Positions 1,256-23,362 of a stretch of DNA of 27,363 nt are shown piece by piece (position 1 is the stretch's first letter; each line of letters opens with the position of its first letter). Made by a program: the position numbers and the translations under genes. Location of the stretch: IMG/VR virus record IMGVR_UViG_3300030333_003191, positions 2,007-29,369 of that record; one strand, given 5' to 3'. The DNA is from a virus. Under the pieces are notes generated by a model. The model was not told where the DNA came from and did not search any database. It saw only the letters and a program-made list of their open reading frames with translations.

Positions 1256-1283
1256 TTGACAGGGTATTCCACGGTGTTATAGT
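1256..1283 (+). promoter_or_regulatory. Sigma70-type promoter of the left-arm operon
   Basis: A perfect TTGACA (1256-1261), 16 bp of spacer and TATAGT (1278-1283) preceded by TG (1275-1276) make this the best promoter seen in the window. The expected start is about 1290, so the leader is only some 10 nt. A short palindrome, GTTG-T-CAAC (1282-1290), covers the predicted start and could bind a regulator. It drives the operon 1300-3366. Confidence 0.7.
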
Positions 1284-1299
1284 TGTCAACGGAGTAATC

Positions 1300-1506
1300 A
1301 TGCCACTATATGTCTATAAATGCGAAGTATGCCAAACCAAAGTAGAGATCCTACAGGCCTTTGGTGATCCGAGCCCGCATTGTGGGGCGTGTGCTCTGGA
1401 TGATGGAACATCTGTTCCGATGAAAAAACAAGTGGCCCTGACCAGCTTCACATTGAAGGGTGGTGGTTGGGCCAAAGACAACTATGGGCTAAAGAATGAA
1501 AAGTAA
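1300..1506 (+). CDS. FmdB-type zinc ribbon protein
   Basis: This 68-aa protein begins MPLYVYKCEVC, the typical opening of the FmdB / CxxC-CxxC putative regulatory family. It has two CxxC knuckles (Cys8/Cys11 and Cys28/Cys31) that should bind one zinc ion. The start at 1300 is supported by GGAG five bases upstream; an upstream in-frame extension to 1195 would run through the promoter and overlap the divergent gene. FmdB-like proteins are small and are thought to act in regulation or as zinc-ribbon adaptors; the function here is unknown. It is the first gene of the operon, and its last 11 bases overlap the next gene. Confidence 0.85.
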   Translation: MPLYVYKCEVCQTKVEILQAFGDPSPHCGACALDDGTSVPMKKQVALTSFTLKGGGWAKDNYGLKNEK

Positions 1507-1783
1507 GATGTTTCTCCTACTGTTATTGTGCATGACCCAACCGGCTGCGGCAACTTTACCTACTGAGGGGCAGGTTACCGCGCAAACCGAAGATGGTTCT
1601 TGGATATTGGGGTATGACAACAAGCGGTACATCTGTAGGACCACTCGACTATGCAGGGACTTCCGAGTCGACATGCACTTCTTGACTGCGTTTGATCTCA
1701 CACGCGAAAAAGAGTTGGTCGACTACATGACCAAGGATTGGAAGTGGAATGATTGCATCATCCACAGTTGTCGAGAGTATTGA
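1496..1783 (+). CDS. Small secreted four-cysteine protein
   Basis: The 95-aa product opens with a clear signal peptide: Lys2 and Lys4, a run of leucines (residues 7-11), then a TQPAAA end with likely cleavage after residue 19. The mature part of about 76 residues has four cysteines (47, 53, 87, 92), which could form two disulfides in the periplasm. Cys12 lies inside the signal but no good lipobox surrounds it. The start at 1496 overlaps the preceding gene; ATG 1508 is an alternative that would lose the positive n-region. No family is recognised. A protein exported during infection suggests action at the envelope, for example exclusion or lysis control, but that is inference. Confidence 0.7.
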   Translation: MKSKMFLLLLLCMTQPAAATLPTEGQVTAQTEDGSWILGYDNKRYICRTTRLCRDFRVDMHFLTAFDLTREKELVDYMTKDWKWNDCIIHSCREY

Positions 1784-2274
1784 TGCCGGATCATTCATTA
1801 GACGACATCGTCCATTCCATACAGTCTGCCGTTATCGCAGCAACCGATATTGCAGAACGTCACGAACTCGATTCCATCATGAATCAGGAGTTTTGGGAAC
1901 TAAAGGTGGATGACGACGGGAACCCGGTCAAGGATGAGCACGGTAGGGAGGTTTACTCTCCGCGAATGGTGACCATGGAGATCCCTATGTGGGAAGATGG
2001 GAACCTCACGAAAAAGCATATACCTGTTCCGCTCCAGTCACTGACAACAGGGCAAAGCCTTCGAGTAGATAAACTTGAGGTTGAAATGTCTGTTGAAATA
2101 TCAGGGCTGGAGTCCAATAAACAAAAGGGTAAGCTGATGGTTCGTCCATGCCCCAACACGTCATGGTTCAAAAAAGAGAGTAATACTGCTAAACTCAAGC
2201 TGACGTTCAGAGGCAGCGAGCCTCCAGAGGGTTATGCAAGAATCGACGATCAACTAATCAAACTGCTTCCGTAG
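1783..2274 (+). CDS. DUF2589-like protein, first copy
   Basis: The start ATG at 1783 shares a base with the preceding stop (TGATG), with GAGAG upstream, so translation is probably coupled; an upstream in-frame ATG at 1753 lies inside the preceding gene. The 163-aa protein has an N-terminal helix (residues 6-30), a central segment IPVPLQSLTTGQSLRVDKLE followed by a β-rich stretch with alternating EVEMSVEI, and a C-terminal PPEGYARIDDQL. The central PL-x-SL / EV-x-V pattern and the PPEG ending recur in the next gene, so the two are diverged paralogues. This matches what I know of Pfam DUF2589, whose function is unknown. Family assignment is less certain for this copy than for the next. Confidence 0.75.
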   Translation: MPDHSLDDIVHSIQSAVIAATDIAERHELDSIMNQEFWELKVDDDGNPVKDEHGREVYSPRMVTMEIPMWEDGNLTKKHIPVPLQSLTTGQSLRVDKLEVEMSVEISGLESNKQKGKLMVRPCPNTSWFKKESNTAKLKLTFRGSEPPEGYARIDDQLIKLLP

Positions 2275-2283
2275 GAGAGCATC

Positions 2284-2889
2284 ATGGCAGATTCCGGCCT
2301 CGTACAAATGTCATCACAGTTTGGTGGCCTTCCAATGGAGCAACTCATTGGTGGCCCACTCAAGGCTGCGTGTAACGCACAAACACTGCTTGCTAAGGCA
2401 TCCAGCGACTTCATTAAAGATGTTGGTCTGAACGATGATGGCAAAGGCAACTTGTCGGCTCGTACCGTGGACTTTGGTTTCAACAAGCCCGTTCAAGACG
2501 CTGCCGGAAACACGACGATGGAAAAGGTGGATCTCCAGGTTCCACTGCTCGCCATTATCAACACGCCTGCACTTTCAGTCAAGGAAGCCGAAGTGCGCTT
2601 TACTATGGAAGTGAAGTCTTCTACCTCAAGCAAGACCACTTCTGACAGCAAGGCTGACCTTACAGCCAAGGCTAAGTACAATGCTGGCCTGTTTAGCTGT
2701 GAAGTGACTGTGCATGGCTCAGTGGCTAACCACAGCGAGAATAGCCGTAAGAGTGACAACAGCGCCAAGTATGACGTGAAGGTAGTCGCACGCGACGACG
2801 GCCCGCCCGAAGGACTCATGAAGGTATTGGACATGCTGAATGACGCAATCGCGCCAACTCAAGGCGTTCCCGCCCCAACCAAGAAGTAG
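2284..2889 (+). CDS. DUF2589-family protein, second copy
   Basis: GGAGAG stands six bases before ATG 2284. The 201-aa product shows the DUF2589 pattern: an N-terminal helix with IGGPLKAACNAQ (from about residue 22), a VPLLAIINTPALSVKEAEV core (residues 83-105), then β-strands and a Ser/Lys/Thr/Ala-rich segment, ending with PPEGLMKVLDMLNDA. DUF2589 has no known biochemical activity. It is separated by 9 bp from the upstream paralogue and by 9 bp from the downstream gene, so all three are likely co-expressed. No signal peptide, membrane segment or catalytic motif is visible. A structural or binding role is possible. Confidence 0.82.
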   Translation: MADSGLVQMSSQFGGLPMEQLIGGPLKAACNAQTLLAKASSDFIKDVGLNDDGKGNLSARTVDFGFNKPVQDAAGNTTMEKVDLQVPLLAIINTPALSVKEAEVRFTMEVKSSTSSKTTSDSKADLTAKAKYNAGLFSCEVTVHGSVANHSENSRKSDNSAKYDVKVVARDDGPPEGLMKVLDMLNDAIAPTQGVPAPTKK

Positions 2890-2898
2890 GAGACTAAA

Positions 2899-3366
2899 AT
2901 GGCCAGTTATGAAATGAACCCACAGGGCGAAATACGCGATCCCGATCAAATGATCCGCGAAATGAAAAAAGCTGAGAGGGAGCGTGAGCAGGAAGACATT
3001 GAGAGTATGATTGGTGGCAGACCCGAAGAAAACATTGAGTTCAAGCCGTCAACACCGCAGGTGATTCCTACAGGTGACGAAGATATTGAGATTAAGCCGC
3101 GTGACTTGGCTTCAGGTATTTACAAGGGTGCGGGCGGTTACAAGTATGAAGTGATGCCTGGTGGTGAGATTAAGATTCTTGACGCACCAGCCGGTCGCGG
3201 AGTTGGTGTGACATTGAAGTTCGGTCACCCAGCACATGAAGCTATCTTTGAAGAGTTGTCTTCTGGCGCTAAACCAATGGAAGGTGAGACGCGTGCAGAA
3301 GAATCGAAGACGCTTTCTGAAATGATCAAGGAAGACAAAGAAGAATCTACAGTGGCAGTAAAATGA
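2899..3366 (+). CDS. Unknown acidic protein linked to the DUF2589 pair
   Basis: AGGAG lies six to seven bases before ATG 2899. The 155-aa protein is highly charged. Residues 17-38 are a predicted helix. A short motif is repeated as ENIEFKP (44-50) and EDIEIKP (61-67). Residues 73-120 form a more globular, glycine-rich segment (YKYEVMPGGEIKILDAPAGRG region), and the tail is Glu/Lys-rich. I recognise no family. It is the last gene of the left-arm operon, ending just before the structured region that carries the terminator. Confidence 0.72.
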   Translation: MASYEMNPQGEIRDPDQMIREMKKAEREREQEDIESMIGGRPEENIEFKPSTPQVIPTGDEDIEIKPRDLASGIYKGAGGYKYEVMPGGEIKILDAPAGRGVGVTLKFGHPAHEAIFEELSSGAKPMEGETRAEESKTLSEMIKEDKEESTVAVK

Positions 3367-3523: not shown

Positions 3524-3636
3524 TGATACAATCGGTTTAGCCGGTATCTTGAACGTTGTCTTGCATGTTTGTTGCCTTGCCAACCGGCTACCGTCCAACG
3601 GCAGTTCTGTTTTTCCGCTGCCGTTGGGCGGTTTTT
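3524..3636 (+). ncRNA. Candidate small RNA unit with its own promoter and terminator
   Basis: An extended -10, TGATACAAT (3524-3532), predicts a start near 3539; no good -35 is present. The transcript would be about 98 nt. It would contain the pair TAGCCGGT (3538-3545) / ACCGGCTA (3583-3590) and end in the terminator hairpin at 3591-3636. No open reading frame with a ribosome-binding site fits it. This is inference from layout; the simpler reading is that the region is only the 3' untranslated end of the left-arm operon. Confidence 0.3.
3591..3636 (+). terminator. Strong rho-independent terminator
   Basis: CCGTCCAACGGCAG (3591-3604) pairs with CTGCCGTTGGGCGG (3618-3631) over 14 bp with one G-U pair and a 13-nt loop, followed at once by TTTTT (3632-3636). 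The T tract is on the plus strand, so it ends rightward transcription from the 1300-3366 operon. It lies directly after the stop codon of the convergent scaffold gene, where it also prevents antisense read-through into that gene. Confidence 0.85.
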
Positions 3637-3637
3637 A

Positions 3638-4600
3638 TCAGCCGCCTTGTTGGGCTGCTGCTTCTGCCATGTACTGACGACGCAGTAGATCCATACGTTC
3701 GTCGAACGAAAGGTCACTTTGCTCCGTTGTGTTAGCCGCAGGGCTCGCACCCATGTTCATCATTTCGACGGCATCAGGCACTGGTGCTGGTTCGACTGGC
3801 GCGGGTTCCGGTTCGGGTGCCTGTTCTGGTTCAGGTGCTGGGTATCCAGCAAGAACCATACGCAGTGCGTCTTCCTTCGGAATGTTGCTGGCAACCTGGA
3901 CACACAAGGCGTACAGCGCATCTTTGTCATTGTAGACGTGAGGTGCCGTTTCCTGAATCCAGTTCTCGAAGTTATCTACTTCTGCATCCAAGGCTGCTTG
4001 TTCCCGCTGTGCTTCCATTTGCTCGAAGTTACGTGCACGTTCTTCCGCAGCTTCACGCGCAGCAATCAACTCGTCGATTGTGGTTGTGTGGCTTGCTTGT
4101 TGCTTCAGAATAGCTTGCTCATGCTCTTTGCGAAGTGTATCGAGCGCTGCTGAGTGGTTAGCACGAAGCAACTCCATTTCACGTTGCTTCTCTGCCATTG
4201 GGTCAACATCACCATGCAACCACTTCTGCACACGAAGTTCGGTGTCACGGATCTCTTTTTCTCTGGCCTCTAACGCACGACGCTTGACGGCCGCTTCTTG
4301 AAACGCCTTGGTGTATCCGCGTTCGTAGTTGCGGTACTTTGCAGTCATGCCCCGCTGCACAGCGTCTCGAATGTTCTCATCGAGTCCAGTGTACCAAGCT
4401 TCTTTTTGGATCGACTCAAGTTCGCCGTTCCAATCAAGGACTTGAGGCACTTCTTCCAGCGCATCGGCCGCAGTCTCAGTAGACTCAACAGAGTCAGAGG
4501 CTGCCTCGACCGATTCTTGGACTGACTCTACAGGCTCCGACGATTCTACCGATTCGGTGGATACTGTTTCATCTACTGCTTCGTTGTCTTCTTCAAGCAT
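3638..4600 (-). CDS. Scaffold-like assembly protein
   Basis: The 320-aa product is very acidic at the N-terminus (Glu/Ser/Val-rich to about residue 50). It then has a Trp-containing segment (DWNGELESIQKEAWY), a long charged helix/coiled-coil region (about 80-210), a Pro/Glu/Ala linker of the PEPEPAP type, and a short helical C-terminal end (FDERMDLLRRQYMAEAAAQ). This composition and the position in a packaging/portal operon fit a phage capsid scaffold, whose C-terminal helix usually binds the coat protein. There is no sequence proof. Two ATGs lie side by side; the second (4600) is chosen because AAGGAG is five bases away, against two for ATG 4603. It is the last gene of the leftward operon. 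Confidence 0.75.
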   Translation of the reverse strand: MLEEDNEAVDETVSTESVESSEPVESVQESVEAASDSVESTETAADALEEVPQVLDWNGELESIQKEAWYTGLDENIRDAVQRGMTAKYRNYERGYTKAFQEAAVKRRALEAREKEIRDTELRVQKWLHGDVDPMAEKQREMELLRANHSAALDTLRKEHEQAILKQQASHTTTIDELIAAREAAEERARNFEQMEAQREQAALDAEVDNFENWIQETAPHVYNDKDALYALCVQVASNIPKEDALRMVLAGYPAPEPEQAPEPEPAPVEPAPVPDAVEMMNMGASPAANTTEQSDLSFDERMDLLRRQYMAEAAAQQGG

Positions 4601-4630
4601 CATTTCTCCTTGTTGCTTAGGTGGTCATCT

Positions 4631-5305
4631 TTATTTCTTCGCCGCCCCGTACATGCTTGCTACACCGCCAGCGGCTTCTTTTAGCTTCGAACCTACGGGG
4701 GCAGTTGTGCCCATACCTGCGGCACCAGTCAATGCTTTAGCCAATGATGGACCACCCTTACCCTTCATGGAGTAACCACCTACAGCTTCTTCCTCAGTTT
4801 CTTCTGCGGGGGGCTCTTCGGCGGGAGCCATGTCAGCTTCCAGAGCAGCGTCTTCGGCCGCAGTGTCTGCTGTACGGGCGGCAATCTTTTCTACCTGCAT
4901 ACGAAGTTGCATGTCACCTGAGAGCATTTCTGCGATCTCTGTAGGTGACTTGCCTTCCATCTGAGGCATCATTTGCGCCGCAGCCAAGATTTGTGCTGCG
5001 CGTTCAGGAGATACGCCCAACACATCTTCGATAGGCTTCGTATCCATTGTTGCGTCGTCGCCTTCAATGTCTTCTTCAGTCATGTCAGCGGGAGTGGTTT
5101 CGTTTGGCCCCAACGCACCTTCAACATTGCTCAGCATGTCACCCAGCATCAAAGAGTCGGCCTCATTTGCCAGCGGCACCAAGTCACGATCAGGGATGAC
5201 CTCTGTTGTTTCGCCTTCACCTTCGGGTGCCGGTGGCGCACCTTCGGGTGCTCCAGGTTCTCCGGCGTATGGAAGTTTCTTACCTGTTTTGGGATCGGTG
5301 GGCAT
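4631..5305 (-). CDS. Unknown virion-cluster protein, acidic with Ala/Gly-rich C-terminus
   Basis: ATG 5305 is preceded by AAGGAG at six bases; an in-frame extension to 5341 has no such site. The 224-aa protein begins MPTDPKTGKKLPYAG. It has a Pro/Glu/Gly-rich acidic region to about residue 40, a helical middle (SPERAAQILAAAQMMPQM), a Glu/Ala/Pro-rich stretch, and ends in KGKGGPSLAKAL and small residues. No membrane segment or enzyme motif is visible. Its place between scaffold and small virion genes suggests a minor structural or assembly role. The GGPSL motif recurs in two other proteins of the window. Confidence 0.72.
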   Translation of the reverse strand: MPTDPKTGKKLPYAGEPGAPEGAPPAPEGEGETTEVIPDRDLVPLANEADSLMLGDMLSNVEGALGPNETTPADMTEEDIEGDDATMDTKPIEDVLGVSPERAAQILAAAQMMPQMEGKSPTEIAEMLSGDMQLRMQVEKIAARTADTAAEDAALEADMAPAEEPPAEETEEEAVGGYSMKGKGGPSLAKALTGAAGMGTTAPVGSKLKEAAGGVASMYGAAKK

Positions 5306-5347
5306 GGGAGTCTCCTTAATATATGTGGTGTAACATACCACGTAGGA

Positions 5348-5539
5348 TTAGTCAGTTGTGGGTTCCTGCTTTGCAGGTTTCTTTTTCTTAGCGAGTTTCC
5401 AGGCTTGAGTCAGTCCATGACTTGCGATGCTCTTGCCTGTGAGTATTCTACGCTCTCCGCTTCTCATGTGCTCATAGACGTACGCATCTTGATACGGCAT
5501 ATCGAGCACGTAGCGTAGCTTGCTCTCATTCAGTATCAC
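5348..5539 (-). CDS. Small basic protein, translationally coupled
   Basis: The 63-aa product starts at GTG 5539, which overlaps the stop of the upstream gene (GTGA). It is Lys/Arg-rich toward the C-terminus (AWKLAKKKKPAKQEP). No family is recognised. The overlap makes coupled translation with the zinc-ribbon gene likely and is the main support for this short gene. Confidence 0.6.
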   Translation of the reverse strand: MILNESKLRYVLDMPYQDAYVYEHMRSGERRILTGKSIASHGLTQAWKLAKKKKPAKQEPTTD

Positions 5540-6018
5540 TCTTTACCCTTTACCAAGTCAGCCGCAGAAGCAATCTTTGCCTTTGTTCTTCCTGCTGCTA
5601 AGTGTTCTTGTGCTCGGCGCTTCTGGTGCTCACGAATACCTTTACGCATGTTCTCGTCAATACCGTGGCTCTTGCGGCGCTTGAAGGAACGGTGCCTAAG
5701 TTCTTCTAATCGTGTGCTTTTTTGCGTGTCGCTTTCGTGAGTTACCTCGACTCGCTTGCCAGGAAACTTCTTTTGGATGGCAGCTACGCATCGATCATAG
5801 TCTTCTTTGGTTTCGGCTTTGCCCATTACACCAAAGTCGACTGCTGCAAATGACCCGTAGCCTTGACCATGAACGGCGCAGGTGAAGCCTTTGAAACTCA
5901 TCTTGCGCTCGCTACCGCACTCGGGACAGTCGGGTGGGCCCTCTGATGTGCGGTAGAACACTTCGTATTCAAAGAAGTCGCAGCCAGTACATTCGATATT
6001 GTTCGTTCTAAAACTCAT
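5536..6018 (-). CDS. Zinc-ribbon protein of the packaging operon
   Basis: ATG 6018 overlaps the preceding stop (ATGA), which fits the operon pattern better than GTG 6024. The 160-aa protein has an N-terminal zinc ribbon, Cys10/Cys13 (CTGC) and Cys31/Cys34 (CPEC), resembling FmdB-type ribbons. A mid part with a GYGSFAAVDFG segment follows, then a strongly basic helical C-terminal half (about residues 95-150). The basic tail suggests nucleic-acid or acidic-scaffold binding. It is distinct in sequence from the FmdB-like protein at 1300. Function unknown. Confidence 0.78.
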   Translation of the reverse strand: MSFRTNNIECTGCDFFEYEVFYRTSEGPPDCPECGSERKMSFKGFTCAVHGQGYGSFAAVDFGVMGKAETKEDYDRCVAAIQKKFPGKRVEVTHESDTQKSTRLEELRHRSFKRRKSHGIDENMRKGIREHQKRRAQEHLAAGRTKAKIASAADLVKGKE

Positions 6019-7037
6019 AACCACTCATGCGCCGATACTTTGGCTTTGTCACTCTCAAACTTTTCTCTTCGTGCTTTGTCGTCGTGAGCACGCATAAGGT
6101 CTCCCTCTTCGCCTGTAGGCACTAAAAACACTGCCCCTGATTCATACGTTTCTCTTGTATATGGAACGCCGTCAATCTCTACGCTCTCTTCGGCATACGG
6201 CTGTTTATATTCGTATGATTGTCCGTAGTTCTTTGCTGCCGCATCGAAAGCCTTTTGGATAAGTTGTTCGGGAGTCATGTCCTCACTACCTTCCAGGTAA
6301 GGCGCGTAGACTTCAGCGTTCACGTCAGCGGCACCCGAAGTTTTCACCGGATCACCACCGCCATTGGTGCCCTCATCTTCTTCGTCACCGCCCGCTGGTT
6401 TTTGGCGCTTAGGTTGTTGCTTACCTCGCTCGACTGCCTGCCCCGCAGCTTTTTTCCACTTCTCTGCTTGGTCTTCTTTTTCGATCGCTACATTCTCTGC
6501 CTTGTCTTCATCAGATAGAGGTTCGTCGCTTACAGGTGTTTGTTCGTCGGCCTCTTCAAAAAACTTGCGTACAGCTTCTCTGCCTTTGTCTTCTTTGGAC
6601 TGGTATACCAATCCAGCCCCAGGCTTACGGCTACCGAAGCTAAAACTTTTCTGTAGCTCTTTTCTTTGTGCGTCGAGTTTTTCTTGTAGCTCAGATCCTT
6701 GACGACGACGCACAGCGTCCGCGTATTCACGTTGCTGAGTGGGGGTGCCCTTGGGTACGGTTACAGTGCCTGTACCTGCCTCACCCTTGCCCCCAAGATT
6801 AATCTGTGTACGCATGTCTTCCAACACGTTTCCGGCAGTTGTCGAGCCTGACACAGCGCCGGGTTCTTTCTCGTCCTCGTCCTCCAAGGATGGACCACCG
6901 ATTGCTTGGCGGTCAGCGAAGTAATCTTTACTAAGCCTCTTGCCTTTTGCGTAGGCTTTTTTGCCTTTGTTGATCGCGGCTTTCTGTTTTTTCTCTTCGC
7001 TCTCACTGAGTCTTGCTACGTACTTTTCCTTCATCAT
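6015..7037 (-). CDS. Unknown charged protein of the packaging operon
   Basis: The start ATG at 7037 overlaps the upstream stop (ATGA). The 340-aa product is rich in Lys, Glu, Gly and Gln and mostly looks helical or disordered: a basic N-terminus (residues 1-40), GGPSL followed by an acidic run at about 47-60, a basic helix with REYADAVRRRQGSELQEKLD, and an acidic/Gly-rich linker near residue 215. A more folded C-terminal part (about 235-340) contains VPYTRETYESGAVFLVPTGE. No catalytic motif is seen. A minor virion or assembly role is inferred from the neighbours only. Confidence 0.68.
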   Translation of the reverse strand: MMKEKYVARLSESEEKKQKAAINKGKKAYAKGKRLSKDYFADRQAIGGPSLEDEDEKEPGAVSGSTTAGNVLEDMRTQINLGGKGEAGTGTVTVPKGTPTQQREYADAVRRRQGSELQEKLDAQRKELQKSFSFGSRKPGAGLVYQSKEDKGREAVRKFFEEADEQTPVSDEPLSDEDKAENVAIEKEDQAEKWKKAAGQAVERGKQQPKRQKPAGGDEEDEGTNGGGDPVKTSGAADVNAEVYAPYLEGSEDMTPEQLIQKAFDAAAKNYGQSYEYKQPYAEESVEIDGVPYTRETYESGAVFLVPTGEEGDLMRAHDDKARREKFESDKAKVSAHEWL

Positions 7038-22601: not shown

Positions 22602-22624
22602 ACGTGAGCATCAAAGGAGGTAAA

Positions 22625-23362
22625 ATGGACTTGTTTTTCCCGCGACTAAAACCGTGGCAGTATGCGCTGTTCACTTGCCTCTTTGTCATTTGTTGGGTCT
22701 TTGGTGACCCGCTTGAAGCCAGTGCTGGTGGGATGGTGTACGCTAACCCGCTTGCCATTGTTGGTGCGGGTGTTGCCATGGGTGCCTTGGCTGGCGGAGC
22801 GCAGCTTCTCGGTCAACATATTGCTCGAAAGAAGTACGAGAAGAGTGACATCGGTAAGGCGGAAGCGGCCATCCTCAAAGAGCAGGCAAAGATTGCCAAG
22901 ACTCCGCTTAGTGAACTCGGACTTACTGAGGCGCAGAAACGTAAGGCTGTAACAATGGCTTTGGAGCAAGCACGGTCGCAGAAGCGTCAGCTTGAAGAAC
23001 AGCAAATGAGAGCGCGAGACATTCGTGGTCCAGCACGCTCCGGTATCGAAGCCATCCAAGATACCAAGCTGCGCGAAGCAATGTTGCAAGCAGGTGCGGC
23101 AGCAAGATCAGACATCGAAGCACAATCGGCTCAGTTGGCTCTTGCTCGCAAGCAAGGGGCTCAAGGTGTCGTACTACCCGCAGCCCAATCCAGACTGGCT
23201 CAGATGCAGCAAACAGCGGCATTGGCGGGCTCCACATTCGCAGGCGGTGTCGCTGGTGGCGTAGCTGCTTTGGGTGGTTACTACCAAGGTGGAGGCGCAG
23301 GTGCCGGTACCGGTGCAGGTAAGTACCCAACCAGTCCAGGTACCGTAGAGAAACCACAGTAG
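22625..23362 (+). CDS. Membrane-active internal/ejection protein candidate
   Basis: ATG 22625 is chosen because AAGGAGGT lies four bases upstream; GTG 22604 would place that site inside the gene. The 245-aa product has a hydrophobic segment at about residues 13-28 (YALFTCLFVICWVFG), a possible signal cleavage after EASA, a second Gly/Ala-rich membrane-like helix at 41-63, a Lys/Glu/Gln/Ala-rich coiled-coil region (70-195), and a Gly/Ala-rich tail. Small size, two hydrophobic helices and position just before a 1306-aa protein resemble T7 gp14, an internal protein that enters the outer membrane during DNA ejection. No sequence similarity is claimed. Confidence 0.68.
   Translation: MDLFFPRLKPWQYALFTCLFVICWVFGDPLEASAGGMVYANPLAIVGAGVAMGALAGGAQLLGQHIARKKYEKSDIGKAEAAILKEQAKIAKTPLSELGLTEAQKRKAVTMALEQARSQKRQLEEQQMRARDIRGPARSGIEAIQDTKLREAMLQAGAAARSDIEAQSAQLALARKQGAQGVVLPAAQSRLAQMQQTAALAGSTFAGGVAGGVAALGGYYQGGGAGAGTGAGKYPTSPGTVEKPQ

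What the first reader, a model, noticed from the sequence alone, without database searches (positions are those of the whole stretch)
1783..3366. Tandem DUF2589-like paralogues plus acidic partner: a candidate undescribed phage module
Two consecutive genes share the PL-x-x-L / EV core and a PPEG-x-x-x-x-x-D-x-L ending, so they look like a duplicated DUF2589-type pair. They are followed at 9 bp by a third protein with a repeated (E/D)-x-I-E-x-KP motif. The family has no known function, and duplication with divergence suggests a hetero-oligomer. The operon also contains the secreted protein and the zinc ribbon, so a five-gene functional unit is possible.
Basis: partly seen in the sequence, partly recalled or inferred. 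Interest (0 to 1): 0.65.

Follow-up and report, generated by a model that had tools for sequence, protein, structure and literature searches.

The report
Ancient DUF2589 gene pair, lysis-linked
Two neighbouring genes of unknown function in this marine phage belong to an ancient, nearly inseparable pair found in many phages and bacteria, and the pair repeatedly sits beside cell-wall-cutting enzymes, which suggests it helps break or cross the bacterial envelope.

Summary
Confirmed: D1 (1783-2274) and D2 (2284-2889) both belong to Pfam DUF2589 (PF11655) and are divergent paralogues (profile-profile E 1.6e-13). The acidic third gene carries ExIExKP twice.

The pair is very stable: 99 of 100 distinct viral D2 genes have D1 upstream (median gap 9 nt), the last has it downstream, and 81 of 85 bacterial loci hold both types. 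The tree puts the duplication before the phage/bacterial spread. The trio and five-gene unit are not conserved (acidic gene after D2 in 2 of 63 viral contexts), and the module is not phage-specific. Bacteria add a conserved ~90-aa gene (b1).

Main new result: the pair is linked to peptidoglycan hydrolases. In 35 bacterial loci one of five unrelated families lies beside it, all same strand, 34 within 2 kb, none among 416 genes 4-9 kb away. In phages L245/L253 a membrane/coiled-coil gene, D1, D2 and an endolysin form one tight operon. The window's lineage carries that endolysin, but about 31 kb away.

Best reading: an accessory pair of lysis or envelope hydrolysis. How it acts (soluble pore former, or endolysin partner) is open; models are poor and match no solved fold.

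The parts
1256..1283 (+). sigma-70-like promoter site before the block
   Evidence: TTGACA-16-TATAGT with TG, 11/12; consensus match only
1300..1506 (+). small zinc-ribbon protein (68 aa, FmdB-like); upstream of D1 in this phage lineage only
   Evidence: PF09723 34.1 bits, just under cut-off; 29 of 63 complete viral contexts
1496..1783 (+). small protein with signal-peptide-like N-terminus (95 aa); not conserved with the pair
   Evidence: weak DUF7720 match; 1 of 63 contexts
1783..2274 (+). D1: first DUF2589 paralogue, 163 aa, no TM segment or signal peptide
   Evidence: PF11655 61.6 bits; D1 lineage in tree; highest 19-residue hydropathy 0.94
2284..2889 (+). D2: second DUF2589 paralogue, 201 aa, the more conserved partner; amphipathic strand pair at about residues 124-147 with an apolar turn
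   Evidence: PF11655 149.2 bits; alignment A3; beta moments
2899..3366 (+). acidic 155-aa protein with two ExIExKP motifs; lineage-specific neighbour, not part of the conserved module
   Evidence: no family match; 2 of 63 downstream, 3 of 63 upstream
3596..3640 (+). stem-loop with T run, likely terminator between convergent blocks
   Evidence: CCAACGGCAG...CTGCCGTTGG read

Best explanation
D1 and D2 are the two partner subunits of an ancient DUF2589 module that works with peptidoglycan (envelope) hydrolases. Shown here: they are paralogues, kept as an adjacent pair in phages and bacteria, and co-located with unrelated hydrolases on the same strand; in phages L245/L253 a membrane/coiled-coil protein, D1, D2 and an endolysin form one tight operon. 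Inferred: the two cytosolic proteins form a hetero-complex that acts at the inner membrane to let the leaderless hydrolase reach, or act on, the cell wall (a lysis accessory in phages; in bacteria a domesticated lysis or envelope-attack cassette with b1 as third subunit). The step itself (opening the membrane, or carrying or holding the hydrolase) is not shown.
For: Pair: 99 of 100 distinct viral D2 genes have D1 upstream, median gap 9 nt; the exception (L254) has it downstream. 81 of 85 bacterial loci have a D1-type gene near D2. 12 of 12 genomes examined hold exactly two PF11655 genes (three in one Actinobacterium), adjacent. Linkage: 35 bacterial loci with GH19, GH108, GH24, N-acetylmuramidase or c7-type lysin, 34 within 2 kb, all co-directional, 0 of 416 genes at 4-9 kb, Fisher p 1e-8; Pfam near-versus-far counts agree. 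Sample drawn by PF11655 alone, 8 Pseudomonadota loci: GH19 twice, GH24, Amidase_3. Phage lysin c7 (matches an endolysin PHROG) is homologous to the gene before D2-b1-D1 in Flavobacteria and lies within 4 kb of D1-D2 in 41 of 63 viral contexts. L245/L253 operon. L255: D1-D2, one small ORF, then a phage lysozyme. By hydropathy 21 of 23 hydrolases inspected show no signal-like N-terminus.
Against: About half of the bacterial loci show no recognised hydrolase nearby. Bacteroidota loci with a single PF11655 hit have a different partner family and little hydrolase linkage. Archaeoglobus, whose wall has no peptidoglycan (own knowledge), carries DUF2589-related genes AF0414-0417 (PMC3949148). In the window's own lineage the pair is about 31 kb from the endolysin, and in L227/L292 it sits among structural genes. 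Phage contexts share ancestry, so 41 of 63 are not independent events. The hydrolase families tested were chosen because they had been seen near the module. No structure supports a mechanism.
Confidence: 0.6

Rival explanations
1. Endolysin chaperone or inhibitor: D1-D2 hold the leaderless hydrolase inactive in the cytosol until lysis and play no part in the membrane.
For: No TM segment or signal in D1/D2; overlapping D2 and endolysin genes in L245/L253.
Against: The partner hydrolases belong to at least five unrelated families, so one conserved binding surface is hard to picture; endolysins generally need no such partner (own knowledge).
Confidence: 0.25
2. Virion component: D1-D2 are structural or ejected proteins.
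For: L227 has the pair between head and connector-type genes; L292 has it just before a portal-like gene; tail-fibre-like and repeated c0 genes lie near it in others; the window's pair faces the scaffold/portal block.
Against: Bacterial loci across many phyla keep the pair without phage structural genes in view; D1/D2 match no PHROG.
Confidence: 0.15
3. Antibacterial weapon in bacteria: D1-D2-b1 help release or deliver a lysozyme-type effector to rivals; phages share the genes.
For: Signal-bearing small proteins (b2) lie between the module and GH19 and could be immunity proteins; phospholipase-like and jacalin-like genes nearby in some loci; export genes beside the Vibrio plasmid pair.
Against: The neighbours vary; no immunity function is known for b2; the phage operons point to lysis of the own host.
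Confidence: 0.2
4. Anti-phage defence or counter-defence module.
For: Patchy distribution in bacteria (9 of 398 and 19 of 296 sampled genomes) and occurrence on plasmids.
Against: No PADLOC match for D1, D2, b1 or lysins; the recurring neighbours are lytic enzymes, not nucleases or sensors.
Confidence: 0.07

Closest known systems
Pfam DUF2589 (PF11655)
   Same: Both proteins match the profile nearly end to end, above the curated cut-off.
   Different: Pfam treats it as one family of unknown function; here it resolves into two lineages (D1, D2) that occur as a pair, with a third partner b1 in bacteria.
Phage lysis cassettes (holin - endolysin - spanin)
   Same: The pair sits between a membrane/coiled-coil protein and an endolysin in L245/L253 and near lysins in other lineages.
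   Different: D1/D2 have no TM segment, signal or lipobox, so they are neither canonical holins nor spanins.
Type 10 secretion systems (holin/endolysin/spanin-derived; e.g. PMC10109510, PMC10847048, titles and abstracts only)
   Same: Bacterial cassette with a leaderless phage-type muramidase.
   Different: No holin or spanin recognised next to the DUF2589 module; D1/D2/b1 are not known T10SS parts.
Beta-barrel pore-forming proteins
   Same: D2 has strongly alternating strands, an amphipathic strand pair with an apolar turn (GWGPFS/NAGLFS) and Ser/Thr/Asn-rich flanks.
   Different: No sequence or fold match; a resemblance only.

Membership tests
DUF2589 (PF11655) | Profile match above gathering score | tested here: met
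   61.6 and 149.2 bits against 23
DUF2589 (PF11655) | D1 and D2 homologous to each other | tested here: met
   hhalign E 1.6e-13 over 166 columns
Conserved D1-D2 pair | Both paralogue types adjacent | tested here: met
   99 of 100 viral loci upstream plus one downstream; 81 of 85 bacterial loci
Holin | At least one transmembrane segment | tested here: not met
   Highest 19-residue hydropathy 0.94 (D1) and 1.12 (D2)
Spanin | Signal anchor or lipobox | tested here: not met
   No apolar N-terminus or lipobox in D1/D2
Endolysin / lysozyme | Peptidoglycan hydrolase domain | tested here: not met
   No such domain found in D1/D2
Beta-barrel pore-forming protein | Recognisable fold with an inserting hairpin | tested here: inconclusive
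   Amphipathic strand pair in D2, but low-confidence models and no fold match
Lysis-cassette component | Effect on host lysis | not testable with these tools
   Genome context only
Known anti-phage defence system | Match to a PADLOC model | tested here: not met
   no match

The most novel reading that the evidence does not exclude
D1-D2 are a soluble, beta-type membrane-perforating pair: D2's amphipathic strand pair inserts into the inner membrane with D1 as partner or regulator, doing the holin's job for leaderless peptidoglycan hydrolases in phages and in bacteria.
Probability: 0.15. Interest if true: 0.85.

Novelty: new variant of a known kind. Interest (0 to 1): 0.6.

Why it matters
DUF2589 has no assigned function, and only one paper in the library searched mentions it. 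Tying it to envelope hydrolases across phages and bacteria gives a testable role, names the right unit to test (D1+D2, plus b1 in bacteria, plus the neighbouring hydrolase), and would add an undescribed component to lysis cassettes that are usually explained by holin, endolysin and spanin.

Tried and rejected
Five-gene unit and acidic partner: rejected by neighbourhood counts. Phage-only module: rejected. Recent duplication in this phage: rejected; phage D1 groups with bacterial D1 and D2 with D2, and a branch with support 100 separates all D2 (plus one Actinobacterial third copy) from the other D1 rows (a few long-branch rows are placed unsurely). Fold assignment: D2 model pLDDT 56 and D1 model pLDDT 70, Foldseek and VIA-align gave nothing, so the fold was left open. 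PDB sequence search: no hit. PADLOC: no hit. Bacterial-type D1 alignment against viral contigs: no relatives confirmed. Known phages: only one unverified gut contig has a D2 match, and its gene content (D2, a partner, a second DUF2589, muramidase) looks like the bacterial module. NCBIfam: nothing for D1, D2, b1. b1 was not found in the first set of viral contigs or the window, but is in one later viral contig, L254.

Full report
Observation. D1 (1783-2274, ATG 1783 overlapping the stop of the gene before) and D2 (2284-2889) are 9 nt apart, and the acidic gene starts 9 nt after D2. Both D1 and D2 pass the curated cut-off of PF11655 and are related to each other by direct BLASTP (E 8e-4) and by profile comparison (E 1.6e-13). 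The PPEG-x5-D-x-L ending is exact in both; ExIExKP occurs twice in the acidic protein. The window is part of a 29,369-base IMG/VR virus record with an SU10/P22-type portal, terminase and major head protein. The best-listed terminase matches in the phage collection are about 22-25% identical, so the lineage is far from cultured phages.

The pair in viruses. Scans of IMG/VR confirmed 188 stretches for D2 and 104 for D1, of which the best 80 each were kept, and a scan with a more diverse alignment added other lineages. After removing duplicates by D2 sequence there were 114 distinct D2 genes. Of 100 with enough upstream sequence, 99 have D1 upstream on the same strand with a median gap of 9 nt; in 23 the gap exceeds 100 nt, often with an inserted gene. 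The exception, L254, has D2-b1-x-D1 order. In 63 complete contexts the zinc ribbon is upstream in 29, the acidic gene downstream in 2 and upstream in 3, the secreted protein in 1. The pair is the conserved thing; the rest is local.

The pair in bacteria. A genome scan returned 80 loci from Pseudomonadota, Thermodesulfobacteriota, Myxococcota, Bacteroidota, Bacillota, Actinomycetota, Verrucomicrobiota and others. With the plasmid and gut contigs there are 85 loci (L142 and L148 are the same record), and 81 have a D1-type gene near D2. In 12 genomes searched whole there are exactly two PF11655 genes, adjacent, and three in one Actinobacterium. In random phylum samples the family is patchy: 9 of 398 Pseudomonadota, seven of them as neighbouring pairs (one of the nine being the genome at the centre of the draw), and 19 of 296 Bacteroidota, many with a single hit. 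Those single-hit Bacteroidota loci have another conserved neighbour of about 230 aa that is at best distantly D1-like. Bacteria add a third conserved gene, b1, about 90 aa, called in 61 loci and without match in Pfam, PADLOC or NCBIfam. A tree of 75 sequences separates all D2 (plus one Actinobacterial third copy) from the other D1 rows by a branch with support 100, with phage and bacterial members on both sides. Within phages the partners have been exchanged: the window's D1 is closest to L228/L245, its D2 to L293/L294, and some relatives have a close D1 with a distant D2.

Linkage to envelope hydrolases in bacteria. 35 loci have a GH19, GH108, GH24, N-acetylmuramidase or c7-type lysin gene near the module. 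All are on the same strand, 34 lie within 2 kb, and none of 416 genes 4-9 kb away is of these kinds (Fisher p 1e-8). Two cautions: these families were chosen because they had been seen near the module, and related species are not independent. A Pfam comparison of near and far neighbours, which does not pick families beforehand, agrees: GH19 9, GH108 7, pesticin-type 3, muramidase 1, phage lysozyme 1 among 133 near proteins, and none of these among the families listed for 133 far ones; AraC regulators 11 against 2. A few downstream hydrolases had been added to that near set by hand, and only the 25 commonest families are listed for each set. A sample of eight Pseudomonadota loci drawn by PF11655 alone has GH19 twice, GH24 once and an Amidase_3 once. 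By hydropathy 21 of 23 hydrolases inspected show no signal-like N-terminus; L224 clearly does, and L171 has a moderate apolar stretch in what looks like an over-extended start. Several gene starts are uncertain.

Linkage in phages. The lysin family c7, which matches an endolysin PHROG and in L245/L253 also carries a peptidoglycan-binding domain, lies within 4 kb of D1-D2 in 41 of 63 contexts, 18 on the same strand and 23 convergent. Its bacterial homologue is next to D2-b1-D1 in Flavobacteria. In L245 a protein with one borderline membrane segment and a coiled-coil-like tail, D1, D2 and the endolysin overlap or nearly touch (4120-4449, 4449-4952, 4962-5561, 5561-6352). In L255, D1-D2 are followed after one small ORF by a phage lysozyme. 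Other phages do not fit so neatly: L227 and L292 have the pair among structural genes, L251 and L294 beside other functions. The window-type relative L038 (71.5 kb) has the same endolysin, but about 31 kb from the pair. The 41 of 63 share ancestry; the stronger argument is that unrelated hydrolases and separate lineages show the same neighbourhood.

How it may work. D1 and D2 have no signal peptide, lipobox or TM segment, so neither is a canonical holin or spanin. Their constant pairing, unequal conservation (D2 about 50% identical between phage and bacteria, D1 about 20-30%) and operon position suggest a cytosolic hetero-complex that works with the hydrolase at the inner membrane; this is inference. 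D2 has strongly alternating strands at about 99-111, 124-132, 139-147 and 161-169, an apolar turn at 133-138 and Ser/Thr/Asn-rich flanks. That would suit a membrane-inserting hairpin but equally an ordinary beta sandwich. The AlphaFold2 models are of low to middling confidence (D2 pLDDT 56, D1 70) and no solved fold matches, so the pore reading is kept as the novel case, not the conclusion.

Limits. The evidence for function is genome context only. About half of the bacterial loci show no recognised hydrolase. Archaeoglobus has DUF2589-related genes AF0414-0417, up on lactate (PMC3949148), though its wall lacks peptidoglycan (own knowledge), so the family's role may be broader than cell-wall lysis.

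Noticed in passing
L144 (Vibrio sp. 16 plasmid, NZ_OY808999.1): The DUF2589 pair sits near a YcaO-like gene, a HlyD/peptidase-domain ABC exporter pair and a gene annotated as a TcdA/TcdB-type glycosyltransferase domain protein; not examined further.
   Followed up: no
L008, L020, L124, L139 and others, between D1 and D2: Some relatives carry an extra gene between D1 and D2 (c70, c103, c104, c142); c103/c104 have glycine-rich apolar stretches reminiscent of the window's 252-aa protein at 22604-23362.
   Followed up: partly
L089, L130, L133 versus window: Partner exchange: D1 80-84% identical to the window's, D2 only about 58-61%.
   Followed up: partly
Bacteroidota genomes G027, G068, G141, G161: Short ORFs (97-115 aa) that match only the N-terminal 40-50 positions of PF11655.
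   Followed up: no
L316, L319-L324 (Bacteroidota): A conserved pair of about 230 and 190 aa proteins follows single DUF2589 genes; the 230-aa family also includes the protein between the two DUF2589 genes of L141.
   Followed up: partly
L230-L260, c0 genes: Tandem paralogous proteins of about 125 aa (c0) next to D1-D2 in many phages; no PHROG match for the representative scanned.
   Followed up: no
L306 1-1400 (record bases before the window): Long ORF of about 465 aa upstream of the window, function not searched; a run of four unknown residues in a small ORF nearby marks undetermined bases at about 2000.
   Followed up: no
b2 family, e.g. L177:9689-10150, L176:9658-10113: Signal-bearing small protein (lipobox-like in L177) beside the module, often just before the GH19 gene, in several bacteria; a possible inhibitor or immunity protein.
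   Followed up: no
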